A stretch of 64,000 nucleotides of DNA, from NCBI GenBank assembly GCA_016463365.1, contig JAEMRJ010000001.1:7320-71319 (forward strand), given 5' to 3'. Shown here in pieces: positions 4,531 through 47,180 of this stretch (positions are counted from its first letter, which is position 1; each line of letters starts with the position of its first letter). Made by a program: the position numbers and the translations under genes. The notes below the pieces were generated by a model, which was not told the DNA's origin, made no database searches, and saw only the letters and a list, made by a program, of their open reading frames with translations. This DNA comes from Thermoleophilaceae bacterium. GTDB taxonomy: Bacteria > Actinomycetota > Thermoleophilia > Solirubrobacterales > JACPNS01.

Positions 4531-4590
4531 CTAAGAAGTAAGCGGGATAAAACGACCTCGCTGTCATCGCGTTTGCAAAAAACTTTTTGC
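4531..4590 (-). promoter_or_regulatory. Promoter element P1 (GATGACAG-N13-TCCC type)
   Basis: Read on the minus strand: an A/T-rich tract, GATGACAG (4568-4561), 13 bases, TCCC (4547-4544), then GCTTAC and TTAG ending one base before the ATG at 4530. It is one of five copies with identical 13-base spacing, each upstream of a conjugation or sigma gene. It probably drives the leader ORF, two unknowns, VirD4, the 436-residue protein and the nuclease. Confidence 0.75.
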
Positions 4591-4627
4591 GCGCGACCGT
4601 CTCGCTGGACGCCCCCGAAGGCCGCCC

Positions 4628-5002
4628 TCAGATCTCTTCGATGCCGATGCTCGAAAGCAGATCAATACGCAGGCTCGCCGCCTGACTGAAATCCGCGAAC
4701 TCTGCTCCATCGAGCAGCAGCTCGGCGAGCGCGGCGAAATCGCGGTAGGTCATCTGAAGCTGCATCTCCCCGGGCGCGTCGAGCCCGGCGCTCTTCAAAC
4801 AACCGAGCAGCTGCTCGGCGTTTGCCTTTGCCGCTTCCCCCCACTCGCCGGCGTTGCCCTTGCGCCAGAGAAGGCGCACGAGATCCGCGTCCTCGCGGTT
4901 TAGCTCTGCCGGGTAGAAGATCTCGCTTCCCATCACGACGCCAAGCCGCGCCTTCACCTCGGCCGGCGAGGTAAGTCCGAAGGTTTTCACCAGCGCGCTC
5001 AT
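4628..5002 (-). CDS. Small unknown protein at end of T4SS core operon
   Basis: 124 residues starting SALVKTFGL. The ATG at 5002 overlaps the stop of the VirB4-like gene (ATGA), so the upstream in-frame ATG is rejected. It carries no signal peptide or recognised motif; the C-terminal half is Leu/Ala/Asp-rich helix. It is the last gene of the operon headed by P2, and the P1 element begins less than 100 bases beyond. Its size and acidity resemble the two unknown proteins just downstream, but I see no convincing alignment between them. Confidence 0.7.
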   Translation of the reverse strand: MSALVKTFGLTSPAEVKARLGVVMGSEIFYPAELNREDADLVRLLWRKGNAGEWGEAAKANAEQLLGCLKSAGLDAPGEMQLQMTYRDFAALAELLLDGAEFADFSQAASLRIDLLSSIGIEEI

Positions 5003-6255
5003 GCGGCGATCGAGTCTTCTGCGCCCATGCGAGCGTCGGTGTCGATGATCTGCCACTCGTCCGGCGAGAGGTCGTGGTGGACGATCGCTTTGGTGCGGCC
5101 GACAAGCCAGAGGCCCGTTCCCCGCTTGGCAGTTGCGATCACGTCGCGCTCGACGCTTGTGAGGCGGTAGACCTTTTCCACGCCTTGCACCCCTTCGGAG
5201 CCTTGCGGATAGATCACGTGCGTTCCGGTGTCCTCAAGAAGCCCCCGCGCAAGCGCTTCGATGCGCGATCCGCCGTCGCCGGCGCTCATCAGGTCGCTCA
5301 CTCGGTGCAGCACCATGATGTTGCAGATGCCGTAGGAACGTGAGTGCTTGTAGGAGTCTTGGAGCCATTCGCCCACCCCCTCGTGGGCGATGATCTTCCA
5401 TCCCTCGTCGATCACCCAGAAGTTCTTGATGCGCTGATCGTGCTTACGCTGCATTGCGATCTCGGCGCGCAACCAGGCCGAGGCGCAGGCCATCAAAATG
5501 CCGATCGACTCCCCGCCGTAGAAAGCCTCGAGATTCAAGACTACGATGCGCTTGGAAAAGTCGACGTCGCCCGTTGATGGGCCGTCAAACATTCCTTGCA
5601 GCGGTCCCTCGCAGAGGTTTTGAAGCGCAAGCGCGGATCCGCGGACGGCGTCGATCGTGCCGCTCTTGTCAAGCTTCAACGCTTCGCACAGATTCTTCGT
5701 CGGGTGCAGCAGGCCGTGGACGATCATCGGGATCGTCGGCTCGGATTCTTTTGCGGCCGTCTCGCCGAGCACCACCGTGAGCGCGCGCTGCTCAACTGGA
5801 GCGAGCGGCTTCTTCTGCGCCGCCGCCGCAACCGCGAGCAGAACTCCCAGCTGCATCTCAGGCCCGCCGCGAGGGTTCAAGGGATTCAGGCGCACCTTGC
5901 CGCCTGGCTCGAGCCTGATCGGCTCGGCGCCCCAAGCGTTCGCAAGTGGTCCGTACTCGCCCTTGGGGTCAACGATCACCGCTCGACGGTCTTTGAAGAT
6001 CAGCTCACGAGATAGGAACGACTTCACAAGCGCGCTCTTTCCCGAACCGATCTCGCCAAAAATCATCACGTTCGGGTTGGTTAGAACCTTCTTGTTGTAG
6101 AGCACCCAAGGGTCAAAACAGAAGGCAGACCCGAGCCTGCTCTGGCCAATGTAGACGCCCTCAGAGCCAAAGCCTGCTTCGGCCTGAAACGGGTATGCGG
6201 CCTTGAAATTCGCGGTTGTCACTCGGTGGCCGCGCTTCTCGTTTACGTCGCGCAT
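4999..6255 (-). CDS. VirB4-type conjugation ATPase, C-terminal ATPase half
   Basis: The motor ATPase of the secretion channel. Walker A GEIGSGKS is at residues 67-74, a VDPKGEYG segment near 95-102, and Walker B FWVIDE at 279-284, followed by a sensor-like HRVSDL segment. At 418 residues it contains only the RecA-like half; canonical VirB4 proteins are about 800 residues with an N-terminal membrane-associated half. That half is supplied by the preceding gene, which ends four bases upstream, so VirB4 is split across two adjacent proteins here. Such a split is known for actinobacterial SCO6880-type systems. Energises pilus or channel assembly and DNA export. Confidence 0.9.
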   Translation of the reverse strand: MRDVNEKRGHRVTTANFKAAYPFQAEAGFGSEGVYIGQSRLGSAFCFDPWVLYNKKVLTNPNVMIFGEIGSGKSALVKSFLSRELIFKDRRAVIVDPKGEYGPLANAWGAEPIRLEPGGKVRLNPLNPRGGPEMQLGVLLAVAAAAQKKPLAPVEQRALTVVLGETAAKESEPTIPMIVHGLLHPTKNLCEALKLDKSGTIDAVRGSALALQNLCEGPLQGMFDGPSTGDVDFSKRIVVLNLEAFYGGESIGILMACASAWLRAEIAMQRKHDQRIKNFWVIDEGWKIIAHEGVGEWLQDSYKHSRSYGICNIMVLHRVSDLMSAGDGGSRIEALARGLLEDTGTHVIYPQGSEGVQGVEKVYRLTSVERDVIATAKRGTGLWLVGRTKAIVHHDLSPDEWQIIDTDARMGAEDSIAA

Positions 6256-6258
6256 GAG

Positions 6259-7743
6259 CTACACCAGTCCTGACTTCAAGCCGCGGCAGAGCGGCATCGT
6301 GTAGCTGATAGCCGTGCCCTGCTCGCCGAGGAGCCGGCGCAGCTCGAGGTGGCTTTGGGACGCCGCGTGTTCGATCTCGGCGCAGGCCGCGTCGAGCTCT
6401 TCGCGCGTGCGGCCAGAGACGGTCACGAACGCGGAGAAGCGAACCTCCGCGTGGCCAGAGGCAAGCTCTTGCTCCCTCTCCATGATCCCCTGGTAGACGC
6501 GGCGCTTGCTCGCTGAGGTGCGAAACCCGCGCGATTCGCGCGCGTCGGCTGAGGCCTCTTCGCTTGTGGCCGCAGACTGCACGTCGCGCATCGCCTTTAT
6601 GTGCGGGACGGGTTCAACGGTCATGCTCACGGTTCTAAGCACGCTGGTGTTCAGGAGCAGCGGGGACAGGAAAGTCGGCCCGACGCCGATACGCGGAAAG
6701 TTCACGACCCAATAGGTCGTGTGCAGCACGCCTTCGCACTCGTAGGTGTCCCAATCCTCCTCGGCGTAGATCGGGCCCATCGACTGCGGGGCGACGCCAG
6801 TCTTCATCTGATCGGTCACGGCATAAGGATTGAAATGTCCCCGCACGACCCGAGCGAGCGTGCGCGGCCGAAGCGGGCCGACCACGCGAACGTCGGCCTG
6901 GCCCAAGGCCGTGATGAAATGCTCCATCTCGCGCATAAGCAGCGCGCAGTAACCATCGTGATGCTTGCCAAGCCGCGAAGCCATTTTGCGCACGCTGCGC
7001 TTCTTCATGTCAAGGCGCAGCACGAGCAGCAGCTCGTGTTCTTGCTGCACTGACGCGGCACCCGAGAGGAGCTTGACGTAGGACATGACGTTGGGGTCAT
7101 TGGCGCCAAGTTCGGTGTCAACGTTCTCCACCAGGTACTCGCGCAGCTCGTCCTGATTGGCCGGCAGCGTCGTCTCGATCCACTGAATCCGCGAGACCGG
7201 GCAATCGTCGCGCGCTAGGTCTGCAAGCACGGCGGCCCAGCCCTGGAGCTTTGCCTGCTGCTCCTCATCATCCAGAAGCGCAAACGAATCAGCCGTAACC
7301 GCGATCGAGGCCGTGTATGCGCCCCAATCAGCGTCATAGGCAACGCCGACTTCGTGGCCATTGAGCATCGCGCCGAGGATCTCGATCGACTCGATTGCTG
7401 GCGGCAGGTCAGTTTCAAGCTCTGCCTCGCCGTCGATCTCGCCGATGTGGCCGTAGTTCATCGCCTGAGACTCGTAACGCAGACGGCCGAGAAAGCGCCG
7501 GATGCCAAAACGAATCGCGATGTCAGTCCAATCGACCGCTGGCCTGCCAAGCACCGGCATCGTCACAAACGCAAACGTCACTCCCGCAATTACCAGGGCG
7601 ACCATCAAGGAGCGCCCGCTGCCGAGCTGGGTCAGCGCGATGAGGCTGGCGATAAAGCCGATCGCAGCTGCGACCAGCTGACGCATCGAAAGATCACCGA
7701 AAATGCCCGTAGATTCGAGCGGACCAAACTTGTAGTTAGACAC
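6259..7743 (-). CDS. SCO6880/PrgI-like T4SS protein (VirB3-VirB4 N-terminal equivalent)
   Basis: Two membrane helices near residues 20-45 and 50-68 (a PrgI/VirB3-like hairpin) are followed by a large cytoplasmic region with segments typical of VirB4 N-terminal halves, for example YWVVNFPRIGV around residue 345 and an LRTVSMTVEPV strand. No Walker A is present, as expected if the ATPase half is the next gene. Start is GTG, overlapping the TrbL-like stop by eight bases. The match to the family named after Streptomyces SCO6880 is from memory of its architecture; the split VirB4 reading is supported by adjacency. Confidence 0.7.
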   Translation of the reverse strand: MSNYKFGPLESTGIFGDLSMRQLVAAAIGFIASLIALTQLGSGRSLMVALVIAGVTFAFVTMPVLGRPAVDWTDIAIRFGIRRFLGRLRYESQAMNYGHIGEIDGEAELETDLPPAIESIEILGAMLNGHEVGVAYDADWGAYTASIAVTADSFALLDDEEQQAKLQGWAAVLADLARDDCPVSRIQWIETTLPANQDELREYLVENVDTELGANDPNVMSYVKLLSGAASVQQEHELLLVLRLDMKKRSVRKMASRLGKHHDGYCALLMREMEHFITALGQADVRVVGPLRPRTLARVVRGHFNPYAVTDQMKTGVAPQSMGPIYAEEDWDTYECEGVLHTTYWVVNFPRIGVGPTFLSPLLLNTSVLRTVSMTVEPVPHIKAMRDVQSAATSEEASADARESRGFRTSASKRRVYQGIMEREQELASGHAEVRFSAFVTVSGRTREELDAACAEIEHAASQSHLELRRLLGEQGTAISYTMPLCRGLKSGLV

Positions 7744-9415
7744 TTGAGACCTCCTGCCTCGTTACGTTCTGCCGCGCGGCCAGGTGCGCGGGAGGTTCAC
7801 TTGACCCGCCACCTGAGCCGGGTTGGCCTTGACTTGATCCGCCGCCACTTGAAGCGCCGCCGGGGGAGCTACTTCCGCTCTCTCCGCCGCCCTGCGCTGG
7901 AGCAGACGCTCCGGCCGCGCGGCCCGCTGATTGCTGATTTATCCCTTGCCCGGCTGCAGCTCCAACGGCGACGCCAGCGCCTACAACCGCCGCTGGCGCA
8001 GCAGCGGCTCCAGCAGCCGCCCCGCCTCCAGCAGCTCCGCCCGAAGCGCCTCCGCTAGATGCGCCGCTTACGCCTCCAGGCGCGCCGCCCGGTTTGGGGC
8101 CTCCAGCGCCTCCGGGCGGTTTGCCACCGCCGCCTCCCCCAGGAGTACCGCCGCCGCCTGCGCCCGAGCTGCCCTTGGCTGCCGATGAGCCTCCGCCCGA
8201 GCTCTGTCCTTCGCCTTCTCCTTTGCCGCCGCCGCCAAGGCGCGAGGTAAGCGACTGGCGCATCATCTGGGATCCAGTGATCTGCGCGCCGACCGGGGTG
8301 TTTGGCCGGCCCTGAACGTCGCCCAATCCATCAAACGGCAGAAGCGAGAAGAGCACCATCGGGCTAAAAGCTGCAAGCGTCATGATCACCACGCCTGCGA
8401 TCACGCCGGTGACGTCGCCGGCCCCGCCCATCTTGGCGATCATCGTCGCGCCGAACGCAAACATCGTGACGATGAAGAACTTCGCAACGATAATCACGAA
8501 CAGGATGATTCCCATCTTTCGCGCCACGTTCTTGGCTGGTGGCCAGACCGAGGCAACGATGCCGAGCGGCAAGTAGAAGATCACGATGTAGACGAGACCC
8601 TCTCGGATGATCAGCTCGATCATCAGCAAGAAAGTCCCGATCGCCGCGATCACCGCAACGACCAGCAAAACGAACGTCGAGCCAACCGCGACTGCCGCCG
8701 TGTCGGCGCCGGGCGTCAAGAAATCGACCAGGCCTCTCGTGATTTCTTTGGTGTCGCCGCCGAACGTATTTGCCATGCCGAGGCTCAATTGATCTACGGC
8801 AGTCACAAGCGTTTGGGAGATCGGCACCGCTGCGCCGATCGCGATGAATCCAATCGGCATGAATAAAAAACTCGCTCGAAGAGTCGATCCCAGCTGGCCC
8901 GTCATCATGCCGCCGATCGCCGCTGCAACTAGCGCAAGCACCGAGAGCGCTCCGGCGAGAAGCATCATCGCCTGGTACCGCTTCTTGAACCACGCTTTGG
9001 TCGTTTGCGGCGTTGAAGACTTGACCATCAGTTCCTGAACCTTGACCATCATCGAGGCGACGCCGCCCGCGACCCATTTCGCAACCCCGTCCATCGCCTG
9101 CTCGCCAATGCCGCCAACTACCTGCTCGCCGATCGCCGCTGCGCCATTTCCGACCTGCTCGACTACTTCGCCAACGGCATCTTCTGCGCAGCCCAGCGGA
9201 TCGGTGATGCAACCGAGCCCAGCTGCCGCCTGCGCCTTGATTGTGCGCGACTTGGCGCAGACGGCCTGCGAGGGCCGACCAAAGTTCGTCTCCTTGCATC
9301 CCGCCCCGGGAATTGTTTTCGCTCGTGAATCAGCAGCCGAAGCATTCGCGTTGAACGCGAACGTCAGAGCGGTCGCCGCCAGAGCGAAGATCAGCGTCCT
9401 ACGGAGCCTGCTCAT
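7736..9415 (-). CDS. VirB6/TrbL-like polytopic channel protein
   Basis: 559 residues starting at MSRLRR: a signal peptide with cleavage near ANASAAD, an exported stretch with paired Cys, then five or six membrane helices between about residues 140 and 375, and a C-terminal region of about 180 residues that is almost only Gly, Ser, Ala, Pro and Gln. That layout (multi-spanning core plus low-complexity tail) is what actinobacterial TrbL/VirB6-type conjugation proteins show. The ATG at 9415 overlaps the VirB8-like gene by 17 bases and gives a clean signal peptide, so the longer upstream reading frame is rejected. It should form the inner-membrane part of the channel. Confidence 0.78.
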   Translation of the reverse strand: MSRLRRTLIFALAATALTFAFNANASAADSRAKTIPGAGCKETNFGRPSQAVCAKSRTIKAQAAAGLGCITDPLGCAEDAVGEVVEQVGNGAAAIGEQVVGGIGEQAMDGVAKWVAGGVASMMVKVQELMVKSSTPQTTKAWFKKRYQAMMLLAGALSVLALVAAAIGGMMTGQLGSTLRASFLFMPIGFIAIGAAVPISQTLVTAVDQLSLGMANTFGGDTKEITRGLVDFLTPGADTAAVAVGSTFVLLVVAVIAAIGTFLLMIELIIREGLVYIVIFYLPLGIVASVWPPAKNVARKMGIILFVIIVAKFFIVTMFAFGATMIAKMGGAGDVTGVIAGVVIMTLAAFSPMVLFSLLPFDGLGDVQGRPNTPVGAQITGSQMMRQSLTSRLGGGGKGEGEGQSSGGGSSAAKGSSGAGGGGTPGGGGGGKPPGGAGGPKPGGAPGGVSGASSGGASGGAAGGGAAAGAAAAPAAVVGAGVAVGAAAGQGINQQSAGRAAGASAPAQGGGESGSSSPGGASSGGGSSQGQPGSGGGSSEPPAHLAARQNVTRQEVSSV

Positions 9416-10109
9416 AAAGCTCGCCGCCTTCCATCTCTTCGTAGAAACCGGACTCAGTTGTTGTGCGCTGAGCGGCGCTGACATACGGCACCGGCGCCGG
9501 GCGCTGGGCGTAGCTTGAAACCTTCCAAGTGTTCGCATCTCGCACCAGGCCTATGCGGTCGCGCACGTAGGAGACGCGCGGCACGGCTTGCCCCTCGATG
9601 CCAGAGACGGTCATCGACCAAATCGAGACGAATGCCTTGTTGTCCGCGTAGGACTCAACAAAGAACTTCAACGGCACGACGTCGGCGATGTAGACGCCGC
9701 TCGCGTCCTTTGCCGCATACAGCGGGCTTTCGGCCTGCGCTGCCATCAGCTCTTCGAACTGCTTGGAAACCTGCGCCTTTCCCTCTGGCGCAACTTGCGC
9801 CATGACCTTCGCTCGCGCAACCTCCGCCTCATCGAGATCTGCGACGAGGAAATACTTCTCGAACGCCGTCGCCGCGGCGACCGCGCCCTCTTTGGTTTGC
9901 GCGTAGGCGGGCAGACCCGTTACCTGGGCCTGAGCCGGAGCCTTCGCCCCCGCCCGCGGGGCGGGGTTCTTTACGGCAGCAAACAGAAACAGCAGGGCAG
10001 CCAGACTGCCCACACCAATTACGGCTGGCACGAGCCACGGCTTATCTGTGTTCGCACTGGTGCGAGACCGGGAGCCAGAGCGCGTCTTGGTGTAGGCAGT
10101 CACGGCCAT
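9399..10109 (-). CDS. VirB8/TcpC-like bitopic T4SS protein
   Basis: 236 residues: basic N-terminus, one membrane helix near residues 25-46, an Ala/Pro linker, then a soluble domain of about 150 residues with the helix-rich then beta-rich pattern of NTF2-fold VirB8 proteins (FVSIWSMTVSG, TWKVSSYA strands). Position between the pilin-like and TrbL-like genes fits a VirB8-type scaffold. Sequence identity to VirB8 is not visible by eye, so the call rests on architecture and context. Confidence 0.6.
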   Translation of the reverse strand: MAVTAYTKTRSGSRSRTSANTDKPWLVPAVIGVGSLAALLFLFAAVKNPAPRAGAKAPAQAQVTGLPAYAQTKEGAVAAATAFEKYFLVADLDEAEVARAKVMAQVAPEGKAQVSKQFEELMAAQAESPLYAAKDASGVYIADVVPLKFFVESYADNKAFVSIWSMTVSGIEGQAVPRVSYVRDRIGLVRDANTWKVSSYAQRPAPVPYVSAAQRTTTESGFYEEMEGGELYEQAP

Positions 10110-10111
10110 CC

Positions 10112-10438
10112 CTACTTCACCTCAGTGCCGAGGTTGTAGAAGGACTCACCGATGGCGTTCGCGCCGCCGATGACGACTGCTCCGACGCAGGCTGCCAGCA
10201 GGATCATCTTGCCGCCTGCGGCGTGCTGCGGGTTGTGGCCCTTGCTGCCGACGATCCACATGATCACGCCGACGACGAGCGCCGTGACAACTGCATACTG
10301 GCCCCAGCGCATAGCGCCGCCGACCAGTTTCTCGATCACGCTGCCACCGGGCAACGAGTCATTTGGTTTTGCGCCAAAGGCGTCGGCCGCGAAAATGATC
10401 GTGGCCGCCTTCAGCGAAGCGAGTGATTCGATCATCAC
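10112..10438 (-). CDS. VirB2-like small membrane protein (pilin candidate)
   Basis: 108 residues with two hydrophobic helices (about 48-64 and 78-95) separated by a short basic, Gly-rich loop (SKGHNPQHAAGG), the size and topology of VirB2/TrbC pilins and of the small two-helix proteins found at this place in actinobacterial conjugation loci. An N-terminal hydrophobic segment could serve as signal. Start is GTG at 10438 or ATG at 10435; the former overlaps the upstream stop. Pilin function is inference. Confidence 0.6.
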   Translation of the reverse strand: MMIESLASLKAATIIFAADAFGAKPNDSLPGGSVIEKLVGGAMRWGQYAVVTALVVGVIMWIVGSKGHNPQHAAGGKMILLAACVGAVVIGGANAIGESFYNLGTEVK

Positions 10439-10578
10439 TAGTTCCTCTCTTTCGTTTCATTGACGGCGGCCGTCGCCGCCACGTTCGCCTCGAGGGAATC
10501 CTCGAGAACGTTTAGATGGCGCCCGCCGCGTCCGGTTGCGCTTGCTTGGTGAGCAAAATTGATTGCCAGCGCGCTCAC
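10438..10578 (-). CDS. 46-residue protein of T4SS operon
   Basis: A short frame starting with GTG that overlaps the peptidase gene stop as GTGA and whose TAG meets the start of the pilin-like gene. Sequence begins SALAINFAHQAS and ends in a charged helix. Tight coupling on both sides argues it is translated. No family recognised, no membrane segment. Confidence 0.5.
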   Translation of the reverse strand: MSALAINFAHQASATGRGGRHLNVLEDSLEANVAATAAVNETKERN

Positions 10579-12134
10579 TTGGGGACCCCCAGGAGCGCTT
10601 CTGGATCGCCTGTCATGCAGGCGATGTGCAGGTGGTTCACGCCGTTGGCCGCGCCCGAGGTTCCAAGCAGCTGACCGCCCGTGACGTTCTGGCCAACGCG
10701 CAGGGCTACGCGCGATTTCAGGTGCGTGTAGAACCACTGGTTATCTCCCGTCTGGAGCGTCACGTTGAAGCCGTCTGGGTTTCCTCTACCGCCGCTCCAC
10801 GAGCCGCCGAGCTTGGTCACGCGAGCATTGGCAACCGCATAGACCGGAACGCCCTGCTTGATTCCGATGTCCACCGCCTGATCGCTCTGCCAGTTGCCCC
10901 AGGGGCGTGACTTGTGCGCGCTCACGCCGCCGATGCTCTTGCCCTTCTCGGCGAGCGGATAGTGAAGGCCAGAAGCTCCAACGACCGACGAGCTCGCGCC
11001 GGCCGGGCAGGCCGCTGCAGCATCGGCGCTCGTGGTGTCGCTTGGCACGATGCTCTCGCTGCCATTGAGGTAGGGCATCGGGTCGGTCGGAGGCGAGTTC
11101 ACCGCGCCGCCTTTGCGGACCTCAAAGTGAAGGTGCGGCCCGGTGGAGTTACCCGTGTTGCCGACGTAGCCGATCAGCTGTGATTGAGAGACGACTGAAC
11201 CATTCTTGATGCCGGTAGCAAAACGCTGCTGATGCGCGTAACAAGTCGTAAGCGCGTTTGAGTGCTTTATGCAGATGTAGTTGCCGTATCCGCCCATCGG
11301 GCCGGCCCAGATGACGCGGCCAGCGAGCGCAGCGACGATCGGCGTTCCAGCTGGCGGCGCGATGTCTACGCCGGCATGGAGCCGTCCCCATCGCTGGCCA
11401 AAAGGCGAAGTGATCGGCCCGCTTGTCGGGCGGCGGAACTTCACGCCGTTGACCGGAGCCGATTGACTCACCTGCGCGGCCGTCACCGTTCTCGTTGCGA
11501 CGGTTCTGCTTGCAACCGTCGTGGTCTGCGCGTTTAGCCGCTGCGAGCCGCCACTGCCCTGGATCGGCGCCTTGGAGAGCTTGACCATCCGGGCGTTGCC
11601 CCACTCGTTCGACTTCTTCTCGTCGGCGTCGCCCCAGATGTAAAAGTCGATTCTGTAGGTGCCATCACTTCCGTCAAAATCGCCGCCCGTATCTGCGACC
11701 ACGAACGGGCCGCGCCAGTTGTACGGATTCGGCCAGAGGTAAACCAATGCGCCGTACTTATTCAGCTGCGGGTTGGACGCAATCAGGTACTTCCTGAGCT
11801 GCCCCTTCTTGACGCGAATGCCCGATGCCGTCGAATCACAGCGGTTGCCGGTGTCGCAGTTGATCCCTCCCGCCGCAGGCGCATACGCCGTTGAGCGGTA
11901 CTCGTTCTCAACGACCGTTGTCCCGCCATAGACGTGGCGGCGCGCGCGCTCGATCTCTTCCCTTGAAACGCCCGTGCCCAGCACCCCGCCGAGCGATCCC
12001 GGCGCGTCCGAGGTAGCGGTGAGGTCGCCGTCAGGCGAGCACGTCGCCTGCGCCTGGGCGATGATGATTGCCAGTCCCATAAGCACGAGCAAAGGGACAA
12101 GGACAAGGCCTCCGATCAGCATGGACTTGTTCAC
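10575..12134 (-). CDS. Exported peptidoglycan hydrolase with 3D-like and two M23 domains
   Basis: An N-terminal membrane anchor (residues 5-28) is followed by a segment with the features of a 3D/double-psi beta-barrel domain (residues about 95-180: STAYAP, paired Cys, VVADTGGDF, RIDFYIWG). A first M23 metallopeptidase domain follows with its HAGVDI and HLHFEV zinc motifs, then a second, degenerate M23 domain (AVDIGI, YTHL, NHLHIA) at the C-terminus. The first M23 keeps the zinc ligands; the second lacks the first His of HxxxD. This is the VirB1-like activity that opens the cell wall for the transfer channel. Starts by ATGA overlap with the preceding unknown. Confidence 0.85.
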   Translation of the reverse strand: MNKSMLIGGLVLVPLLVLMGLAIIIAQAQATCSPDGDLTATSDAPGSLGGVLGTGVSREEIERARRHVYGGTTVVENEYRSTAYAPAAGGINCDTGNRCDSTASGIRVKKGQLRKYLIASNPQLNKYGALVYLWPNPYNWRGPFVVADTGGDFDGSDGTYRIDFYIWGDADEKKSNEWGNARMVKLSKAPIQGSGGSQRLNAQTTTVASRTVATRTVTAAQVSQSAPVNGVKFRRPTSGPITSPFGQRWGRLHAGVDIAPPAGTPIVAALAGRVIWAGPMGGYGNYICIKHSNALTTCYAHQQRFATGIKNGSVVSQSQLIGYVGNTGNSTGPHLHFEVRKGGAVNSPPTDPMPYLNGSESIVPSDTTSADAAAACPAGASSSVVGASGLHYPLAEKGKSIGGVSAHKSRPWGNWQSDQAVDIGIKQGVPVYAVANARVTKLGGSWSGGRGNPDGFNVTLQTGDNQWFYTHLKSRVALRVGQNVTGGQLLGTSGAANGVNHLHIACMTGDPEALLGVPK

Positions 12135-12547
12135 GCCTTGCTCTCTGCGCGAGCGCTCGCAAATTCGGCGACCTGCCAGCCACTATCTCCAAGCACGAGG
12201 CCTACGCCGATGCGAATGTAGGTGCGGCCAGCTCGTCCGAGCACGATCCCGATGCGGACGACCTCACTGTCGGTCGAGCCCAGCACCAGCGTCCTCAAAA
12301 TGCCGTTGCCCTCGCTCGTCTGATCGAGATGGGCGTGGAATCCTTCGAGCCGCGCCGTGATCTCCAGCGAGCCGTTCGTGCTGGCTGATTCGATCAGGCG
12401 CGCGACCTCGTCGTTGCCTTCGTCGATCGCGACGACCACCCTCCGCACGAGCATCCGCGCAGCACGGACGGCCGAGACGCAGATCACTCGAAATTCCCGA
12501 TCCATCGGTTGCGTGTCCTGGCCCAGCGACGTCGTCGGACCGCGCAT
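12131..12547 (-). CDS. Unknown 138-residue protein
   Basis: Soluble beta-rich protein with no signal peptide: Arg-rich helices in the first third, then alternating strands (RIGIVLGRAGRTYIRIGV). The ATG overlaps the stop of the sigma/anti-sigma-like gene (TGATG). Position between a sigma/anti-sigma protein and the structural T4SS genes makes a regulatory role possible, but no motif supports one. Confidence 0.65.
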   Translation of the reverse strand: MRGPTTSLGQDTQPMDREFRVICVSAVRAARMLVRRVVVAIDEGNDEVARLIESASTNGSLEITARLEGFHAHLDQTSEGNGILRTLVLGSTDSEVVRIGIVLGRAGRTYIRIGVGLVLGDSGWQVAEFASARAESKA

Positions 12548-14658
12548 CAGCCGCGCTCCTCAGGAAGAAACTCGGAGGATCCATCATCGACGCCCGATGA
12601 ACCGCTTGAACTCGGCGCTGGCTCGGGGTTGCTCGGCGCAGCTGCCGGAACGTAGGTCGTCGTCGGCTGCGGGGCCGGCTGGGCCCCCTTGGCCTGCTTC
12701 TTGTGGTGCTTCTTGCGCTTGTGCTTCTTGGGCTTGGGCTTCGCAGCGGCGGGCGCGCTCGGCGCGGCGGCCACCTGCGGGTCGCCTCCGCCCCCACCGT
12801 CGAACGTGATGCCGACCAGGAGCAGCAGCGCGGCCACGGCCGCGATCAGGACGCCGGCAATCTTCTTGCGCGAGTCCTTCTGCTCGTCGCGCTCCACGTA
12901 GTCGAAGTCGTCGTCTTCGTCGGCGTCGACCCAGCGGGCGATATCGCGCTCCTCACTTGCAGGAGCGGACTTTGTCAGGTACGTCGCGGCGCCCGCAGCC
13001 GGAGCTACTTCAAGCACGCTCATCGGCGCGCCCTGCTTCTCCGGCTCCTCTTCAACGACGATTGGCGGCGGGACACTGCCGATGAGCTCGGCGTCATCCT
13101 CTGTGGCGAGATCCAGCACCAGGGCAACCGGCACAGCGCGCTCGGCGAAGTCGATTGCCTGAGCGCGCTCGGAAATGCTCAGTTCGGATTCCGAATCCGC
13201 CTCGGCGGGGGAATCAGTCTCCTGCTCGGCCACCACGACTTCGGGATCTGCGGAGGCGACCGGGATCTGTTCGACTTCGGCCGCCTGAGCAAGCTCAGGC
13301 TCTTCGGCAGTCGGCCGCTCTTCCTCGAGAGCCACCTCGCCAGCCCAATCAAAGACTTCCCCGGCGGCCGGCGCACTTTCGTCCAGCTCGTCGTTTCGGA
13401 TCAGCGCCGGCACGACGATCGTCGGGTCGATCACGTCTTCCAGAATCGCCATTGACGCATAGAGATCGAGGTCGTCGCCGTCCTCGTCGTTGTCGTCGAG
13501 CATCTCCTCCTCCTCGATCGCCGCGAGGTCGATCGGGGGAGCTGGGCCGGGGTCGACGAACCCCAGCGACGTGCTCACAGGCGCGGGCGCCTCCGTCGCG
13601 ACAGGCTCCGGCGCGCCGACAGTTGCGACGGCCGCAGGGGCGGCCTCAAGCTCGGCCGCTTCTTCGGACGCAAGGATCGCCGCAGCTGACACGCTCTCGA
13701 CCTCCTCGAGTTGCGCGTCGTCGAGTAGAAACTCCTCGCCCGGCCAATCTGCAGCCTCGGCCTCAGCGGTTACAAGCTCTCGCAGTTCGCGCTCGCGCGC
13801 AACGTCAAAGTTTTCCTCCGGCGCGAAGGCGGGCTGCGCCTCGATCACCTCGGTTACGGGTTCACTTGCCGCCGCAGCTTCGGGGGGGTATTCGACCTCG
13901 GCGCCGGTGTGGCGCTCAAAGTCAGCTGCGACGGCAAGCCCGAGCGAGCGGCCACGCATGATCTCGGCCGACTGCTCGGCCGTGAGGTCACGCGGGGGAA
14001 TAACCGCCGCCATAAGAGTCAACGCGCGTGAGAGATGCGTGCGTACAGACGCGCACGCATCACACGAGTCTTCATGCGCCATAAAACGCTCGACGTCTGC
14101 GCTGATCTTCTTGTCCTTGTCTCCGTAGAGGCCAAAGATGATTCGCGGAAGCACCGCGTCTGTCTCGCCGCAGCCGGTCAGCGCGCTCGCGTAGTAACCA
14201 CGCACCAGAACGCCGGCGGCGGCCTTTGCCGCGCTCCGGGCTTTGTTGATCGTCACATCCGAGTCAGCAGCGATCTCGGCCCAGCGAAGTCCGTAGACAG
14301 CGCGCATCACGAGCGCGCGGTCGCCGATCCGGTCTTTGCTGAAGTGCATCGCGCGAGCGAAGATCTCCAGCTCGGTGCCGGTGTAGTAGTCCTCAAGGCC
14401 GACCTCACGGACCGGCACAACGCCATCCTCAAGATCCTCACGCTTGTATCCGATCGCGCTCAGCGCTTCGAGCGCGGGAAGCAGCGTCTCCTTGTCGCCG
14501 TCGCCCAAGACGTCGTCGCCTGCTCTTGCGAGCAGCTGGAAGAGGTCGATCGTTCGACGGCGATCGTCAGTGCCGTACTTCTCAAAGAGTTCCAGTTCGC
14601 CGGCCAAGGAGAAGCGCTGCATGGCCGTGACGTGCTTGAAGATGATTTGACCGCTCAT
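12547..14658 (-). CDS. Membrane sigma/anti-sigma-like fusion with GSSEFLPEER tail
   Basis: 703 residues in four parts. Residues 30-160 look like a divergent ECF-type sigma region 4 (RALVMRAVYGLRWAEIA with a following helix rich in Lys/Arg). At 195-202 is H-x3-C-x2-C (HEDSCDAC), the zinc-finger signature of anti-sigma domains. Residues about 220-590 are acidic, Ala/Glu/Pro-rich and low-complexity. One membrane helix lies at about 599-619, then a Lys/His-rich segment and the terminal GSSEFLPEERG. The N-terminus should be cytoplasmic and the tail outside. Region 2 of sigma is not recognisable, so DNA-binding by this protein alone is uncertain. It heads the T4SS operon directly behind P2, the usual autoregulatory position. 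The second fusion at 24.9 kb has the same order and tail. Confidence 0.7.
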   Translation of the reverse strand: MSGQIIFKHVTAMQRFSLAGELELFEKYGTDDRRRTIDLFQLLARAGDDVLGDGDKETLLPALEALSAIGYKREDLEDGVVPVREVGLEDYYTGTELEIFARAMHFSKDRIGDRALVMRAVYGLRWAEIAADSDVTINKARSAAKAAAGVLVRGYYASALTGCGETDAVLPRIIFGLYGDKDKKISADVERFMAHEDSCDACASVRTHLSRALTLMAAVIPPRDLTAEQSAEIMRGRSLGLAVAADFERHTGAEVEYPPEAAAASEPVTEVIEAQPAFAPEENFDVARERELRELVTAEAEAADWPGEEFLLDDAQLEEVESVSAAAILASEEAAELEAAPAAVATVGAPEPVATEAPAPVSTSLGFVDPGPAPPIDLAAIEEEEMLDDNDEDGDDLDLYASMAILEDVIDPTIVVPALIRNDELDESAPAAGEVFDWAGEVALEEERPTAEEPELAQAAEVEQIPVASADPEVVVAEQETDSPAEADSESELSISERAQAIDFAERAVPVALVLDLATEDDAELIGSVPPPIVVEEEPEKQGAPMSVLEVAPAAGAATYLTKSAPASEERDIARWVDADEDDDFDYVERDEQKDSRKKIAGVLIAAVAALLLLVGITFDGGGGGDPQVAAAPSAPAAAKPKPKKHKRKKHHKKQAKGAQPAPQPTTTYVPAAAPSNPEPAPSSSGSSGVDDGSSEFLPEERG

Positions 14659-14710
14659 ACCCCCTAGGCGGGATAAATCGAGCCTCCTGTCATCGAGTTC
14701 GTGAAAAAAC
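14659..14710 (-). promoter_or_regulatory. Promoter element P2 (GATGACAG-N13-TCCC type)
   Basis: On the minus strand: A/T tract, GATGACAG (14694-14687), 13 bases, TCCC (14673-14670), then GCCTAG in place of the usual CTTAC, 11 bases from TCCC to the ATG of the sigma/anti-sigma-like gene. It is the most divergent copy in the downstream box. A GGGGG run just before the ATG might serve as a ribosome site or simply be the transcript start. Confidence 0.72.
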
Positions 14711-14760
14711 TTTTTCGCCCAACTCGATGACAGCTACCCCCTGGCCTCCCACTTACCTAG
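14711..14760 (+). promoter_or_regulatory. Promoter element P3 (divergent from P2)
   Basis: GATGACAG (14726-14733), 13 bases, TCCC (14747-14750), then ACTTACC; the ATG of the zinc-finger gene follows at 14770. P2 and P3 share one central A/T tract and form an inverted repeat (GATGACAG, AACTC and the A5/T5 core mirror each other), so two divergent promoters face away from one control region. Confidence 0.72.
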
Positions 14761-14769
14761 TGAAGGCCA

Positions 14770-15141
14770 ATGAACACACCGACGATCAGCAAGCACCGGA
14801 GTCCTGTCAACTGCTCCAAGCCCGGCTGCTCGACGCCGTCCAACGGCATCGGGCCATTCAACTACTGCCGCACTCATTACCGCAGCTATATGGAATGGCT
14901 CGCCTGCCGTACCCGGCTCCAGGCGCACATCGAGGTCTGCATCAAGCAGATCGACCAAAGCGCCGCCCTGCCGCAGGAGGACGTCGACGCCTTCGCTGAA
15001 GTCGGTGTGCCGTTGGCCCTCGTACAGCACGAGCGCGAGCAAGTCCTTATCGGAGCAGTGATGGACCAGATCGGCCACCACGCAACCCGCTCGGTCTTTC
15101 GCCCGCGCCCGAACTCAATCCCTAAGGAGAACGAGACATGA
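14770..15141 (+). CDS. Small zinc-finger protein preceding ssb
   Basis: 123 residues. Residues 18-40 contain C-x4-C-x12-C-x2-H (CSKPGC then YCRTH), a plausible single zinc-binding site as in small plasmid and phage DNA-binding proteins; the rest is helical and acidic. It is the first gene behind P3 and overlaps ssb by ATGA, so it is probably co-expressed with SSB. No ribosome site is evident within the short leader, in keeping with a near-leaderless start. Function unknown. Confidence 0.7.
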   Translation: MNTPTISKHRSPVNCSKPGCSTPSNGIGPFNYCRTHYRSYMEWLACRTRLQAHIEVCIKQIDQSAALPQEDVDAFAEVGVPLALVQHEREQVLIGAVMDQIGHHATRSVFRPRPNSIPKENET

Positions 15142-15518
15142 ATCACGTCTCAATCAGCGGCAACCTCACGGCCGACCCTGTGAAGAAGCCGACGAAGTCC
15201 GACAAGTTGATGGCGACCGCAAGCATCGCCATCAATCACCCAAAGAGCGGCGAAGTCGAGTACTTCGACATCACCGCCTTCGACAAGACGGCCGAGATTC
15301 TTCTCGACCGCGGAGAGATCGGCCGCCCGGTCGCGATCTCCGGTCGCCTGCGCTACCGCGCATGGGAGGACGAGGGCAAAAAGCGCTCGGCCGTCGACAT
15401 CGTCGCCAACCAGGTGTTTATCGCCGAGAAGCGCCCCCGCAAGCAGGACGCCAGCGAAACCCGCGACCAGTCCGAGGCAGAGGCCTCACAGGAAGAGAAG
15501 GTGGCCGTCGAGTTCTAG
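15138..15518 (+). CDS. ssb: Single-stranded DNA-binding protein
   Basis: 126 residues with the SSB OB-fold pattern: NHVSISGNLTADP at the N-terminus, the EYFDITAFDKTAE strand, GRPVAISGRLRYR, and a VDIVANQVFI strand, followed by an acidic tail. The terminal residues are KVAVEF, not the DDxPF tip that recruits host repair proteins, though a terminal Phe is kept. Plasmid SSBs coat transferred single strands during conjugation and suppress SOS; linkage to P3 supports expression with transfer genes. Confidence 0.9.
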   Translation: MNHVSISGNLTADPVKKPTKSDKLMATASIAINHPKSGEVEYFDITAFDKTAEILLDRGEIGRPVAISGRLRYRAWEDEGKKRSAVDIVANQVFIAEKRPRKQDASETRDQSEAEASQEEKVAVEF

Positions 15519-15588
15519 TCGACGCCTCAGCCCCCCGGCCGCCGCCAGCTCTTTCGGGCTGGCTGGCGGTTCGGTGGTGGTTGTGGTT

Positions 15589-15610
15589 GGTACGGCGCTT
15601 GCGCGCCGCG
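15589..15610 (+). repeat. GC hairpin element in leader of sigma gene (copy 1)
   Basis: GGTACGGCGC-TT-GCGCGCCGCG lies in the 132-base gap between ssb and the next gene. An almost identical 22-base element stands at 22258, and both are followed by a CGGCGATG segment and a GAGGAACCA ribosome site before an ATG. It could be a structured leader or terminator; a larger stem (GCCGCCAGC with GGCTGGCGG) precedes it. Confidence 0.45.
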
Positions 15611-15650
15611 GCGATGGCCTCAAACAGCCCAACTCTCACGAGGAACCAAG

Positions 15651-16571
15651 ATGCAACAGCAACCGACATCAACTTCCGAGACAGACCGCGACTACCTGGC
15701 CCGCGTCGTATCCAAGCCTCCCCTGCCCGCGCCGGTCGAGAAACGCCTCTTCGCGCAGCTCGCCAAGGGCGATGCCGCCGCCCGTGAAGCGCTCGTGCTG
15801 CACAACACGCGGCTCATCACGAGGGCGATCGTCGCGATCCCGAACGAGCAGCGCCAGCATCAGCTCGGCCCGATCACGCCCGGAGGCCTCGAATACACCG
15901 ACCTCTTCAACCAGGGCTACGTCGCTCTGACCAACGCGATCAACATGTTCAACCCCGCGCGCGGCGTCCCCTTTGACGTCTACGCCGGCACCGCGATCAA
16001 GAACGAACTCAGCAAGGCGCTGAACAATCTTGAAGATCAGGTCCGGCTACCGGCGCAGGCCGCGCAGCTCGAGCGCCAGATCTTCCGCATCGAAGACAGG
16101 CGCAAGCTGCGAGGCGTCACGACGCCGCTCTCAGATGAGCAGCTTTCCGAGATGACGGGCGCAACGCTCTCAATGGTCAAGAACGTTCGCACCGCGCCCC
16201 GAGTCGTCACGAGCCTGCAGACCCCGACCGAAACCGGCACCGAACTCGGAACGCTGCTCGCCGACACGACGCCCGACGAGCAGCTGGCAGATGAGGACAC
16301 GTCAATCCTCGACCACTTCACCCCCGAGCGCGTGAACACGTTGCTCGATTCCATCAAACCCAAGTACGCGGACCCAATCCGCAAGCACTACCTCGAAGGC
16401 AAGTCACTCGAGACGACCGCGCAAGAGACGGGCGTCTCCGCAACAACCACCGCAAAAAACATCCGTCACGGCATCGGGCAGCTTCGCCGAGTCGCAAAGA
16501 CGCAGATCAACGAACACCAGGCATCGACCGCGCTGCAGGCCGTCGCCTCTAAAGGAGCAGCATCGCTATGA
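15651..16571 (+). CDS. Sigma-70 family factor with regions 2, 3 and 4
   Basis: 306 residues. Region 2 is at about 80-130 (YTDLFNQGYVALTNAI, then FNPARGVPFDVYA), region 3 follows, and region 4 with its helix-turn-helix is at about 240-285 (YADPIRKHYLEGKSLETTA). It has the order and size of an alternative group 3 sigma factor, but the polar residues of region 2.4 are unlike the housekeeping set, implying a different promoter. The start follows a GAGGAACCA ribosome site. It overlaps the next gene by four bases. It may recognise plasmid promoters; the element is not shown by sequence alone. Confidence 0.82.
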   Translation: MQQQPTSTSETDRDYLARVVSKPPLPAPVEKRLFAQLAKGDAAAREALVLHNTRLITRAIVAIPNEQRQHQLGPITPGGLEYTDLFNQGYVALTNAINMFNPARGVPFDVYAGTAIKNELSKALNNLEDQVRLPAQAAQLERQIFRIEDRRKLRGVTTPLSDEQLSEMTGATLSMVKNVRTAPRVVTSLQTPTETGTELGTLLADTTPDEQLADEDTSILDHFTPERVNTLLDSIKPKYADPIRKHYLEGKSLETTAQETGVSATTTAKNIRHGIGQLRRVAKTQINEHQASTALQAVASKGAASL

Positions 16572-18274: not shown

Positions 18275-18279
18275 GCCTC

Positions 18280-26074: not shown

Positions 26075-26151
26075 CCACTGCCACCGCGACCGAACCGGAA
26101 GAGATCAACAACATGCTCATTTCAGCCAGACCAACCAACAAAGGAAAGTCA

Positions 26152-29100: not shown

Positions 29101-29166
29101 TCTGAAGATGCCTGGGGTCACGCCTTCAGCGTCTCAAAGCCGATCAACATCAAGCTCAACTACTAA
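26152..29166 (+). CDS. Large exported Ig-like surface protein
   Basis: 1004 residues. The start at 26152 has an AAAGGAAAG ribosome site and yields a signal peptide ending SAQA-G; an earlier in-frame ATG is rejected. The mature protein is Gly/Ser/Thr-rich beta structure with Ig-like repeats (for example SASFTYKTDNTDPTTPSS and LVDKAGNVSDVGDG), Cys pairs, and a Lys-rich C-terminal part with two tandem beta-sandwich modules (VSKKRAKTGQSITFSGKVTP). No sortase motif or membrane anchor is seen. It could coat the cell or promote mating contacts. It is read in the same direction as the sigma fusion 77 bases upstream and ends at a terminator. Confidence 0.8.
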   Translation: MNKKIRAMVVAALTVASVFAFSTSAQAGNYTVTPNPCGQWGGGYGSNGWGLGINCVSGYSSFQLGGGSVGPPGTYMWLKSDRLNDATYLSSLSLSYISSEATGSGDHIQVRGCQRYTGVTPVYSGGPNGSCVGGVMAFPNQTAGFAWRTFGAGALACGSNCGGYQIDTSASYTSGHVWINGVSAEITDNTAPVTTSGFASHEISQGGWINGSAGFGATGTDSNGSGITNITFYPGDPLLTVSQNKSCNYAQWIPCTLVVGTTAGSSFDTTAMSDGSHTGYYTSTDAGGNTGQSASFTYKTDNTDPTTPSSIAASTDGQSGWSSDNSIGASWNNGAEVAETATQSGLDQVIIDVNPTTGGQTDPAPVTVPVGGSASGISATTSSISGLALPEAGAWTLRLQLVDKAGNVSDVGDGSGSSADSDISVGYDPNPPASPAGVANGWISRDELAAGFDQEFTYSAPPQAIAQLCGFAGAIDKNINGTAGSTINVPGDGSVRSWQLPGTLDEDTHYVHLRAVSCNGLASPTTETVTAPVDRTDPVGTISGVENGKWYKDGQLVELLGSDVLSGMAPAPPSDTESTLGAYLSYTINGSGPLDKDAPRGDTTSLPITGEGQKELRFSPVDLAGNKAAAKVATFGIDATNPNGYIDRPDAARPTLLSSKLTDAPSGVSYAVFSVRPTGSSDADWIQLPTSLTGADGNVVGAAVASGSATARFPDTSLPQGSYDVRVQAFDQAGNPLATQRYQDGSLARVENPMRAATGVSLKLFKALRECKKNKNGKMKCAIKKCTKKTKGTCYKVLKGKVVLQGGSTTVTSAYNRGAIATGVLTDANGAALKNTEVSISTTTKVHGKSAEVGTATTDANGIWALRVPAGVNRAVKATYLGTETRRPSTSSATMNTQAKLKLKVSKKRAKTGQSITFSGKVTPYDAAYPSGGKIVALQFFAAKKWRPAVGVAHTDKNGKFKISYKFDGKKVKAKIIFRVVAPSEDAWGHAFSVSKPINIKLNY

Positions 29167-46261: not shown

Positions 46262-46405
46262 ATGAGCCGCCTGACCACACCCGAAAAAGTGTCTTTGACC
46301 TTCGCCTACGCCTCCGCCGCGCTGGCCGCGAGCGAGTCCGCAGTGTTCATTTTCTTCGCCGCCAGAAGCGTCTTCGGCGCCCGCAAATCGGCCCGCTCGC
46401 GCTGA
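46262..46405 (+). CDS. 47-residue membrane-associated peptide
   Basis: MSRLTTPEKVSLTFAYAS opens a frame with an Ala-rich helix (about 12-35) and a strongly basic C-terminus (ARKSARSR). It follows the 37-residue membrane peptide by 12 bases; the ribosome site is weak (AAAGG). A pair of tiny membrane proteins just upstream of the relaxase region. Confidence 0.45.
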   Translation: MSRLTTPEKVSLTFAYASAALAASESAVFIFFAARSVFGARKSARSR

Positions 46406-46420
46406 CCTCAAAAGGACCCC

Positions 46421-46708
46421 ATGCCTGAACTTTCTGACAAGCAACTCGACGAACTTCTCGACGCAATTGACTCGATGCCGACCCCCAGCTTCTACCCGCC
46501 CCAAGCGCGGGAGGCTGGCGAGCCTTTCATCGAGCGCCACCGCATCGCCTTCGACGAAATCGTCTTCACCGTCTGGCACGCAGACGTTCCGATCGCCGTC
46601 AACCTCGACGCGAACTACAAGGCGGCCGACCAATACCTCGACCACTTGGACAAGGTCGGCTTGGCCTATCCGCCGCCCTCGTCCTCGCAATCAAAAGCCA
46701 CTGACTAG
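46421..46708 (+). CDS. Unknown 95-residue acidic protein
   Basis: Begins PELSDKQLDELLDAIDSM, an acidic helix; ends with strands and a helix (DEIVFTVWHADVPIAVNL). An AAAGGA ribosome site is five bases before the ATG. No family recognised. Confidence 0.6.
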   Translation: MPELSDKQLDELLDAIDSMPTPSFYPPQAREAGEPFIERHRIAFDEIVFTVWHADVPIAVNLDANYKAADQYLDHLDKVGLAYPPPSSSQSKATD

Positions 46709-47120
46709 CCCGGCCTTCGAGCCGGCAAGTCGGGGGGCTGGCTAGGTGGTCTGAGAGCCGGGGGAGAGTTCGGGATTCTCAGCGTGGCCAGATCCGGCAG
46801 AGCAGCCGGCAAGCGCGCCGACCAGCGCCGGGGAACTTCGTCGCCCTGGCTGGCGCGCGCCTCCGGCGCAAGTTGTTGTCCCCGCCGACTCGCCGCAACC
46901 GCCGACCCGCCGCGGGCGCAAAAAGATTCAGCAAGACCGCAAGAACCAGCATCGAGCAAATCGAACTGGAAATCGACGAGACAGACGAAACAGACCGACA
47001 AGCGACCAACGGAACGAAAAAGCAAGAAGGAGGAACGAAAACCGCATAGGTAAGCGAATAGAGACGGCAAAAAGCAAAAAGAGCACTACACACGGATGCA
47101 CCCTCCGGGTGGCGGACTGA
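46709..47120. other. Gap upstream of relaxase; candidate oriT region
   Basis: About 410 bases with no firm gene. The first 200 contain GC dyads. From about 46915 to 47095 the plus strand is A-rich and almost free of T, a strong strand asymmetry unlike the rest of the window; one frame through it would encode a Lys/Glu-rich peptide but lacks an ATG or GTG start. A CACCCTCCGGGTG dyad follows at 47098. Location next to a MobF relaxase makes it the best oriT candidate, though no nic-site consensus is recognised. Confidence 0.35.
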
Positions 47121-47180
47121 AATTTCTTTCAAAAACTCGATGACAGGGGGCTCGATTTCTCCCACTTACCAATTAGAACG
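47121..47180 (+). promoter_or_regulatory. Promoter element P5 (GATGACAG-N13-TCCC type)
   Basis: A/T tract, GATGACAG (47139-47146), 13 bases, TCCC (47160-47163), ACTTAC, then TTAG four bases before the relaxase ATG. Closest in sequence to P2 around the GGCTCGATTT spacer. The leader would be under ten bases, with no room for a ribosome site. Confidence 0.8.

What the first reader, a model, noticed from the sequence alone, without database searches (positions are those of the whole stretch)
4531..47180. A five-copy plasmid-specific promoter class: GATGACAG-N13-TCCC[A/G]C[T/C]TA
Direct observation: five copies (P1 4568-4531 minus, P2 14694-14664 minus, P3 14726-14756, P4 24825-24856, P5 47139-47169) share an upstream A/T tract, exact GATGACAG, an invariant 13-base spacer and TCCC[A/G]C[T/C]TA. 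Every copy ends within 20 bases of a start codon, and they control both halves of the T4SS operon, the SSB/sigma operon, an ECF fusion and the relaxase. The motif is unlike housekeeping -35/-10 boxes. Inference: a dedicated regulon read by a plasmid sigma factor.
Basis: partly seen in the sequence, partly recalled or inferred. Interest (0 to 1): 0.93.

Follow-up and report, generated by a model that had tools for sequence, protein, structure and literature searches.

The report
Plasmid's private promoter set for transfer
Five near-identical two-block DNA motifs sit 6 to 14 bases in front of start codons that head the DNA-transfer and sigma-factor-like gene clusters of a plasmid-like element; they are likely promoters read by a sigma factor that the element itself encodes, which would let it switch its transfer genes on as one set.

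Summary
In detail: GATGACAG-N13-TCCC[A/G]C[T/C]TA occurs exactly five times (0.29 expected at three mismatches) and tops an unsupervised scan of gene-start regions. All five copies share a register-locked A/T tract, an AAC, a T-purine pair 35-36 bases on, and an ATG 6-14 bases behind block 2. P1 with its 32-codon ORF is a decayed copy of P4 plus the start of the P4 gene: blocks 17/17 identical, spacer 7/13, downstream 41/72, which argues for selection on the blocks. The copies head the secretion, coupling-protein, relaxase, SSB/sigma and ECF-like operons. In 39 related genomes the motif has no exact match and two one-mismatch matches, the same number as the reversed control, so a sigma factor common to those genomes is unlikely to read it. 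Best reading: a private transfer regulon read by an element-encoded sigma, most likely the membrane-tethered ECF-type protein behind P4; the sigma of the P3 operon is the main rival. Reader, start sites and signal are inferred. In relatives the ECF-type gene stands beside a subtilase-like gene whose best solved match is site-1 protease, hinting at release by proteolysis.

The parts
4539..4568 (-). Copy P1 (blocks 4561-4568 and 4539-4547); A/T tract at 4578-4587; predicted transcript start 4532
   Evidence: start site inferred
4432..4530 (-). 32-codon ORF behind P1, decayed copy of the start of the P4 gene; stop overlaps ATG 4435 of the 140-aa ORF
   Evidence: 41 of 72 bases match the P4 gene start, best of 127,856 positions apart from itself
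263..4435 (-). Genes behind P1: 140-aa and 142-aa proteins, coupling protein (1570-3651), 436-aa protein
   Evidence: PF02534 4.9e-37; operon inferred from gene order
14665..14694 (-). Copy P2; A/T tract 14704-14713; predicted transcript start 14658, the A of the ATG (leaderless)
   Evidence: start site inferred
12547..14658 (-). 703-aa protein heading the secretion operon: region-4-like helix-turn-helix, HxxxCxxC, membrane stretch, tail DDGSSEFLPEERG
   Evidence: PF08281 0.0058, below cut-off; relatives P0007, P0008 keep the tail; hydropathy
4999..12547 (-). Secretion genes behind P2 (VirB4-like 4999-6255, M23 peptidase 10575-12134 and others)
   Evidence: operon inferred
14687..14733 (.). 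P2 and P3 back to back: 13-base inverted repeat (14687-14699 and 14721-14733) around one A/T tract
14726..14755 (+). Copy P3; A/T tract 14707-14716; predicted transcript start 14762
   Evidence: start site inferred
14770..19407 (+). Genes behind P3: 123-aa protein, SSB (15138-15518), sigma-70 family protein (15651-16571), region-4-only protein (16568-18274), region-2 protein (18280-19407)
   Evidence: PF00436 2e-19; TIGR02937 52.7 bits against cut-off 42.9 for 15651-16571; operon inferred
24825..24854 (+). Copy P4; A/T tract 24806-24815; predicted transcript start 24861
   Evidence: start site inferred
24863..26074 (+). ECF403: diverged ECF-type sigma, zinc-finger part, weak membrane stretch, tail GDGSSEFLPEER; proposed reader of the motif
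   Evidence: zf-HC2 0.0016 and NF052375 anti-sigma 2.8e-4, both below cut-off; no Pfam sigma match itself; relatives match sigma regions; alignments
26113..29166 (+). Predicted exported protein with Ig-like domains
   Evidence: PF19077 3.6e-11; 29-70% identical beside ECF relatives; N-terminal hydrophobic stretch
29387..32551 (+). Predicted exported subtilase-like protein
   Evidence: D220, H263, N366, S458 invariant in 5 of 5; profile matches site-1 protease, 5.1e-4, over the Asn/Ser part; Pfam does not call it
47139..47168 (+). Copy P5; A/T tract 47120-47129; predicted transcript start 47175
   Evidence: start site inferred
47181..50198 (+). TrwC/MobF relaxase with helicase part
   Evidence: PF08751 1.9e-71; MobF matches on plasmids
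53530..55166 (+). Two sigma-70 family genes (53530-54330 regions 1.2 and 2; 54327-55166 regions 1.2-4), possibly at the end of the P5 operon
   Evidence: operon extent inferred from co-directional genes

Best explanation
The five copies are likely promoters of one transfer regulon, predicted to be read by a sigma factor that the element itself encodes, most likely the membrane-tethered ECF-type protein (ECF403) whose gene lies right behind copy P4. Shown by sequence: two blocks at fixed spacing, a register-locked A/T tract upstream, a T-purine pair at a fixed place, an ATG 6-14 bases on, and blocks kept intact in a decayed duplicate. Inferred: ATGACA sits at -35 and C[A/G]C[T/C]TA at -10, the A/T tract acts as an UP element, and transcripts start at or up to 8 bases before the AUG. 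Inferred: ECF403 is held at the membrane and inhibited by its fused zinc-finger part; a signal outside the cell, passed through the C-terminal tail and perhaps by cutting by the neighbouring exported subtilase, would free the sigma part. It would then switch on its own gene, both halves of the secretion system, the relaxase, SSB and the other sigma-like genes together. The 703-aa protein heading the secretion operon has the same tail and would share or compete for that signal.
For: Motif statistics and anatomy. P1/P4 duplicate: blocks 17 of 17, spacer 7 of 13, 41 of 72 behind. The copied unit is the promoter and start of the ECF403 gene, which fits an autoregulatory promoter as the source of the regulon. 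Relatives of ECF403 match sigma region 2 above cut-off in 4 of 5 cases. No exact match and two one-mismatch matches in 39 related genomes, reversed control also two, so a reader common to those hosts is unlikely. Shared tail of ECF403 and the 703-aa protein; their relatives are reported from contigs of the same lengths, 26,865 and 60,382 bases.
Against: ECF403 and its three close relatives P0002-P0004 have no Pfam sigma match above cut-off, so its sigma function may be lost; its zinc-finger and anti-sigma matches are also below cut-off, and its membrane stretch is weak by hydropathy. In the more typical relatives (L110, L111, L113, L148) the ECF gene has other upstream DNA and no motif. The models of ECF403 and the 703-aa protein were too poor to test the fold. 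A second full sigma gene also lies behind a copy (P3). DNA of the close relatives could not be fetched, so the motif is known from one element only.
Confidence: 0.5

Rival explanations
1. Same regulon, but the reader is the sigma-70 family protein of the P3 operon (15651-16571), or the region-2 and region-4 proteins beside it acting as a two-part sigma. ECF403 and the 703-aa protein would be targets or inhibitors.
For: 15651-16571 passes the curated sigma cut-off (52.7 against 42.9 bits) and lies behind P3, so it too would be autoregulated; relatives at 89, 75 and 52% exist.
Against: Does not explain why the duplicated promoter unit came from the ECF403 gene. Its relatives lie on contigs of 1,222-1,922 bases, so linkage to the motif is unknown.
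Confidence: 0.22
2. The motif is an operator for an element-encoded activator or repressor, and another sigma factor reads a weak promoter overlapping it.
For: P2 and P3 form a perfect 13-base inverted repeat; a response regulator gene lies at 58466-59476.
Against: P1, P4 and P5 are single, not palindromic; the distances fit -35/-10 hexamers 17 apart and starts at the AUG; no sigma-70-type promoter was found around any copy.
Confidence: 0.15
3. A host sigma factor reads the motif, so that the element listens to a host programme.
For: ATGACA resembles the TTGACA box; the host is not known, so its chromosome was not searched.
Against: No exact match in 39 related genomes of about 131 Mb; two one-mismatch matches, both in open frames, as many as for the reversed control.
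Confidence: 0.1
4. A non-regulatory repeat that spread by copying.
For: P1 and P4 share flanks by duplication, and some spacers are alike, P2/P5 11 of 13.
Against: Blocks stay perfect while flanks decay, and 5 of 5 copies sit just before start codons.
Confidence: 0.03

Closest known systems
ECF48, ECF52 and ECF53 sigma factors, e.g. SCO4117 of Streptomyces coelicolor (PMC5826349: outline and abstract; PMC8999054: passages)
   Same: Sigma part followed by zinc finger, membrane helix and proline-rich outer part; own promoter among the targets; release by proteolysis expected
   Different: ECF403 is much diverged, sits on a transfer element, ends in DGSSEFLPEER, and its presumed motif differs from CSGY-N17-SRHA; group membership was not tested
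SigN of plasmid pBS32, Bacillus subtilis (PMC6751061: passages)
   Same: Plasmid-encoded sigma, weakly ECF-like, with its own promoters on the plasmid and autoactivation
   Different: Regulon tied to cell death after DNA damage; the word conjugation does not occur in the text
Regulation of Gram-positive conjugation, e.g. pCF10, pLS20, ICEBs1 (PMC6540685: passages)
   Same: Coordinated control of transfer operons, in part by signals from outside the cell
   Different: The passages seen describe repressors and peptide signals; 'sigma factor' occurs twice and 'alternative sigma' not at all
ICEclc and host RpoS (PMC3395598: search listing only)
   Same: A sigma factor bears on activation of a conjugative element
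   Different: RpoS there is the host's own sigma factor

Membership tests
Dedicated sigma-factor promoter class | Two conserved blocks at fixed spacing just upstream of several operons | tested here: met
   5 of 5 exact
Dedicated sigma-factor promoter class | Restricted to the replicon of the sigma gene | tested here: inconclusive
   No exact match in 39 related genomes and chance-like matches elsewhere, but the host genome is not known
Dedicated sigma-factor promoter class | Transcripts start at the predicted distance and depend on one sigma factor | not testable with these tools
   needs 5' end mapping and in vitro transcription
ECF sigma fused to a membrane anti-sigma part (ECF48/52/53-like) | Sigma regions 2 and 4 | tested here: inconclusive
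   ECF403 itself: no Pfam match; aligned relatives match, region 2 above cut-off in 4 of 5
ECF sigma fused to a membrane anti-sigma part (ECF48/52/53-like) | Zinc-finger anti-sigma part | tested here: inconclusive
   zf-HC2 0.0016 and anti-sigma 2.8e-4, below cut-offs; H224, C228, C231 invariant in 9 of 9
ECF sigma fused to a membrane anti-sigma part (ECF48/52/53-like) | Membrane helix | tested here: inconclusive
   mean hydropathy 1.67 at 298-316
Plasmid-encoded sigma regulon (SigN type) | Sigma gene under its own promoter class on the plasmid | tested here: inconclusive
Subtilase S8 (29387-32551) | Asp/His/Ser triad and oxyanion Asn | tested here: met
   D220, H263, N366, S458 invariant in 5 of 5 (assignment of the residues by eye)
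Subtilase S8 (29387-32551) | Match to a curated S8 family model | tested here: not met
   no S8 match in Pfam for any of 5 members; PDB profile match to site-1 protease 5.1e-4

The most novel reading that the evidence does not exclude
Conjugation on this element is run by a membrane-tethered sigma factor that is cut free when an exported, site-1-protease-like subtilase, encoded two genes behind it, reads a DGSSEFLPEER tail exposed outside the cell. The same tail on the leader protein of the secretion operon couples sensing to assembly, and a private, nearly leaderless promoter class fires all transfer operons at once.
Probability: 0.17. Interest if true: 0.85.

Novelty: new variant of a known kind. 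Interest (0 to 1): 0.62.

Why it matters
In the passages I saw of a review of Gram-positive conjugation (PMC6540685), transfer operons are run by repressors and peptide signals. A transfer regulon with its own promoter class and its own sigma factor would be a different logic of control. It offers an orthogonal promoter/sigma pair from a little-studied class of Actinomycetota, and makes testable whether conjugation can be switched on by proteolytic release of a tethered sigma factor. The P1/P4 duplicate suggests how such a regulon grows: the sigma-like gene's own promoter is copied in front of another operon.

Tried and rejected
Own genome: none held. Near DNA match of window 4000-24000 to plasmids: one 37-base match. 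ECF403 and the 703-aa protein against plasmids: none. ECF403 in viral contigs, by sequence and by alignment: no relative; exact motif in viral contigs: none. Exact motif in genome contigs: 29 stretches with one match each in many phyla, not examined one by one and taken as chance (hand arithmetic with equal bases expects about 120). That used the only genome-contig scan, so the protein could not be sought there. Models of ECF403 (mean pLDDT 50.7) and of the 703-aa protein (39.2) were too poor; ECF403 had no PDB fold match with E below 2. BLASTP of ECF403 with the 703-aa protein gave only weak pieces, best E 0.14. Rfam at gathering thresholds: nothing in the window, L110, L111, L113. A second repeated promoter class was not found by the word-pair count. 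The sigma 54327-55166 was set aside as reader because its region 2 looks SigA-like by eye, which would ask for a TATAAT-like -10 (recalled sigma knowledge, no call).

Flaws in my calls: several loci gave an open frame of the wrong strand; one search replaces it. In A4 my coordinates cut the L111 row short, so its missing tail there is my cut (it is present); the same A4 went into. The 40 secretion loci are at most 20 kb and many end at contig ends, so the absence of ECF403 there is limited evidence. One search was given 39 genomes: four with the ECF cassette (G484, G487, G532, G742) and 35 others with a VirB4-like match; G456 and G696 of the 38 were left out.
Full report
OBSERVATION. The pattern GATGACAG-N13-TCCC[A/G]C[T/C]TA is exact at five places; at up to three mismatches 6 matches are found against a mean of 0.29 in 100 shuffles. 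By base composition 2.4e-5 exact matches are expected in the window. A matrix built from any four copies finds the fifth with at most four positions above it, the number of other copies. A count of 6-mer and 4-mer pairs around the starts of 55 ORFs puts this motif first, at 5 of 55.

ANATOMY. Aligned on block 1, all five copies share more than the blocks: A at -19 and -17, T at -14, -12 and -11 (an A/T tract), AAC at -5 to -3, C at +14, T at +35 and a purine at +36 (a G at -44 is also shared, probably by chance). If +36 is the transcript start, ATGACA lies at -35 to -30, C[A/G]C[T/C]TA at -12 to -7 with 17 bases between, and the A/T tract at about -55 to -46: standard promoter geometry. P2 would be leaderless, P1 and P4 would have 2-base leaders, P5 6 and P3 8. 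These start sites are inferred. The ATG lies 6-14 bases behind block 2 in 5 of 5; 4.9% of window positions would meet this with ORFs of 30 codons or more. No sigma-70-type promoter was found around any copy. P2 and P3 stand back to back as a 13-base inverted repeat around one A/T tract.

A NATURAL EXPERIMENT. The 72 bases from the ATG behind P1 match those behind P4 at 41 of 72, the best of 127,856 positions apart from itself (mean 19.0, sd 3.7). The 32-codon ORF behind P1 is thus a decayed copy of the start of the P4 gene. In this pair the blocks are 17 of 17 identical and the spacer 7 of 13. At 57% identity a 17 of 17 match has a chance of about 7e-5, so the blocks were kept while their surroundings decayed. 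The ORF's stop overlaps an ATG (4435) of the next ORF, so the coupling-protein genes sit behind a copied promoter and gene start. The spacers of P2 and P5 are also alike (11 of 13), so other copies may share descent, which weakens the count of five as five independent events.

WHAT THE COPIES HEAD. P1: genes ending with the coupling protein and a 436-aa protein. P2: a 703-aa protein, then secretion genes up to a VirB4-like ATPase. P3: SSB, a sigma-70 family protein, a region-4-only and a region-2 protein. P4: ECF403, an Ig-like-domain protein and a subtilase-like protein. P5: a MobF relaxase and, if the co-directional run is one operon, two sigma-70 proteins. Operon extents are inferred. Of the seven sigma-like genes three pass the TIGR02937 cut-off (15651, 53530, 54327); 16568, 18280, ECF403 and the 703-aa protein are partial or weak. 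The replicon is called plasmid-like because of ParA, ParB, relaxase and secretion genes; the proteins of this window are reported from a contig of 71,319 bases.

ECF403 AND THE TAIL. ECF403 has no Pfam sigma match itself, nor have P0002-P0004 above cut-off. It belongs to a family whose more typical members do: 4 of 5 tested pass the region-2 cut-off. Relatives in the protein search are at 84, 46, 32 and 27% identity; the last, partial, is named as from a Solirubrobacterales bacterium. All five rows of A1 end in GDGS[S/A]EFLP[E/D]xR. The 703-aa protein and its relatives end in DDGS[S/A]EFLPExRG, 3 of 3. Profile comparison of the two families aligns only the last 24 columns, probability 97.6; BLASTP gives nothing better than E 0.14. 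Their relatives are listed with contig lengths 26,865 and 60,382 in both searches, which suggests that the pair travels together. More distant members often end in EFGP: 20 of 39 rows have EF within eight residues of the end (two loci are listed twice in those rows, without the tail).

THE CASSETTE. A member of the ECF family stands beside relatives of the Ig-like-domain and subtilase-like genes in L143, L146, L148 and in L141 (with the ECF of L110), at 29-70% and 32-66% identity for the last two genes. D220, H263, N366 and S458, by eye the catalytic residues of a subtilase, are invariant in 5 of 5. The profile's best solved matches are site-1 protease (5.1e-4) over the Asn/Ser part; the single sequence finds none and Pfam does not call it. 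A tethered sigma factor with an exported protease beside it suggests proteolytic release, as reviewed for ECF48, ECF52 and ECF53 (PMC8999054, passages). The same review says that subtilases and other peptidases may also keep ECF factors inactive by degrading them. Both steps are inferred here. In these relatives the ECF gene has other upstream DNA and no motif, which counts against a promoter fixed for the whole family.

WHO READS IT. A VirB4-like relative occurs in 38 of 399 genomes of the class. None of 40 loci fetched around such genes shows ECF403 or the 703-aa protein at E 1e-3. In one search all loci L030-L157 were scanned for block 1 with at most one mismatch plus exact TCCC: five loci matched. 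L075, L084, L085 and L147 have one mismatch (L084 and L085 lie inside an SSB relative); L128 has exact GATGACAG-N13-TCCC, within its ECF open frame and followed by GAGTC. In 39 genomes (about 131 Mb) there is no exact match to the fuller pattern and there are two one-mismatch matches, as many as for the reversed control, both in open frames. So the motif is not a common promoter of these hosts, and an element-encoded reader is the simplest answer. I prefer ECF403 because its own promoter is one of the five and P1 is a copy of its promoter and gene start. The sigma protein 15651-16571 is the main rival: it passes a curated cut-off and lies behind P3.

KNOWN SYSTEMS. SCO4117 (ECF52) has the same kind of domain order and another motif (PMC5826349, outline and abstract). 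SigN on pBS32 is a plasmid sigma with its own plasmid promoters and autoactivation, tied to cell death (PMC6751061, passages). A review of Gram-positive conjugation shows repressors and peptide signals in the passages seen (PMC6540685). Ten paper searches listed no paper whose title or abstract start names an element-encoded sigma factor dedicated to conjugation; one listed paper concerns host RpoS and ICEclc (PMC3395598, listing only). This covers the held open-access library only.

VERDICT. The finding is real and its core inference is probably right: a private promoter class for a transfer regulon.

Noticed in passing
15651-19407 and 53530-55166: Sigma-like genes come in pieces: 16568-18274 has region 4 only, 18280-19407 mainly region 2, and 53530-54330 regions 1.2 and 2 directly before a full sigma gene; a two-part sigma is possible.
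   Followed up: partly
36963-40410: Two DprA-like genes flank a ComM/ChlI-like gene on the same element.
   Followed up: no
L033, L035, L111, L113, L114, L121, L148 and others: Tethered ECF-type proteins of this class often end in EFGP or EFLPExR at the extreme C-terminus, 20 of 39 rows; a possible signal for a tail-reading protease or partner.
   Followed up: partly
L110, L111, L113, L148 upstream of the ECF gene: A shared GTTATACA followed by a hairpin-like CGCAYATCTCGGTG element precedes the ECF genes of the relatives (pairing judged by eye, not folded); no Rfam match for L110, L111, L113.
   Followed up: partly
26113-32551; L143:1026-7473: The Ig-like-domain and subtilase-like genes are 70 and 66% identical to a pair on a 398-kb contig (L143) although the ECF beside them is only 28% identical.
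   Followed up: partly
4999-7743: The VirB4-like ATPase is short (418 aa) and stands next to a 494-aa-type gene here and in the related loci, as if VirB4 were split in this family.
   Followed up: no
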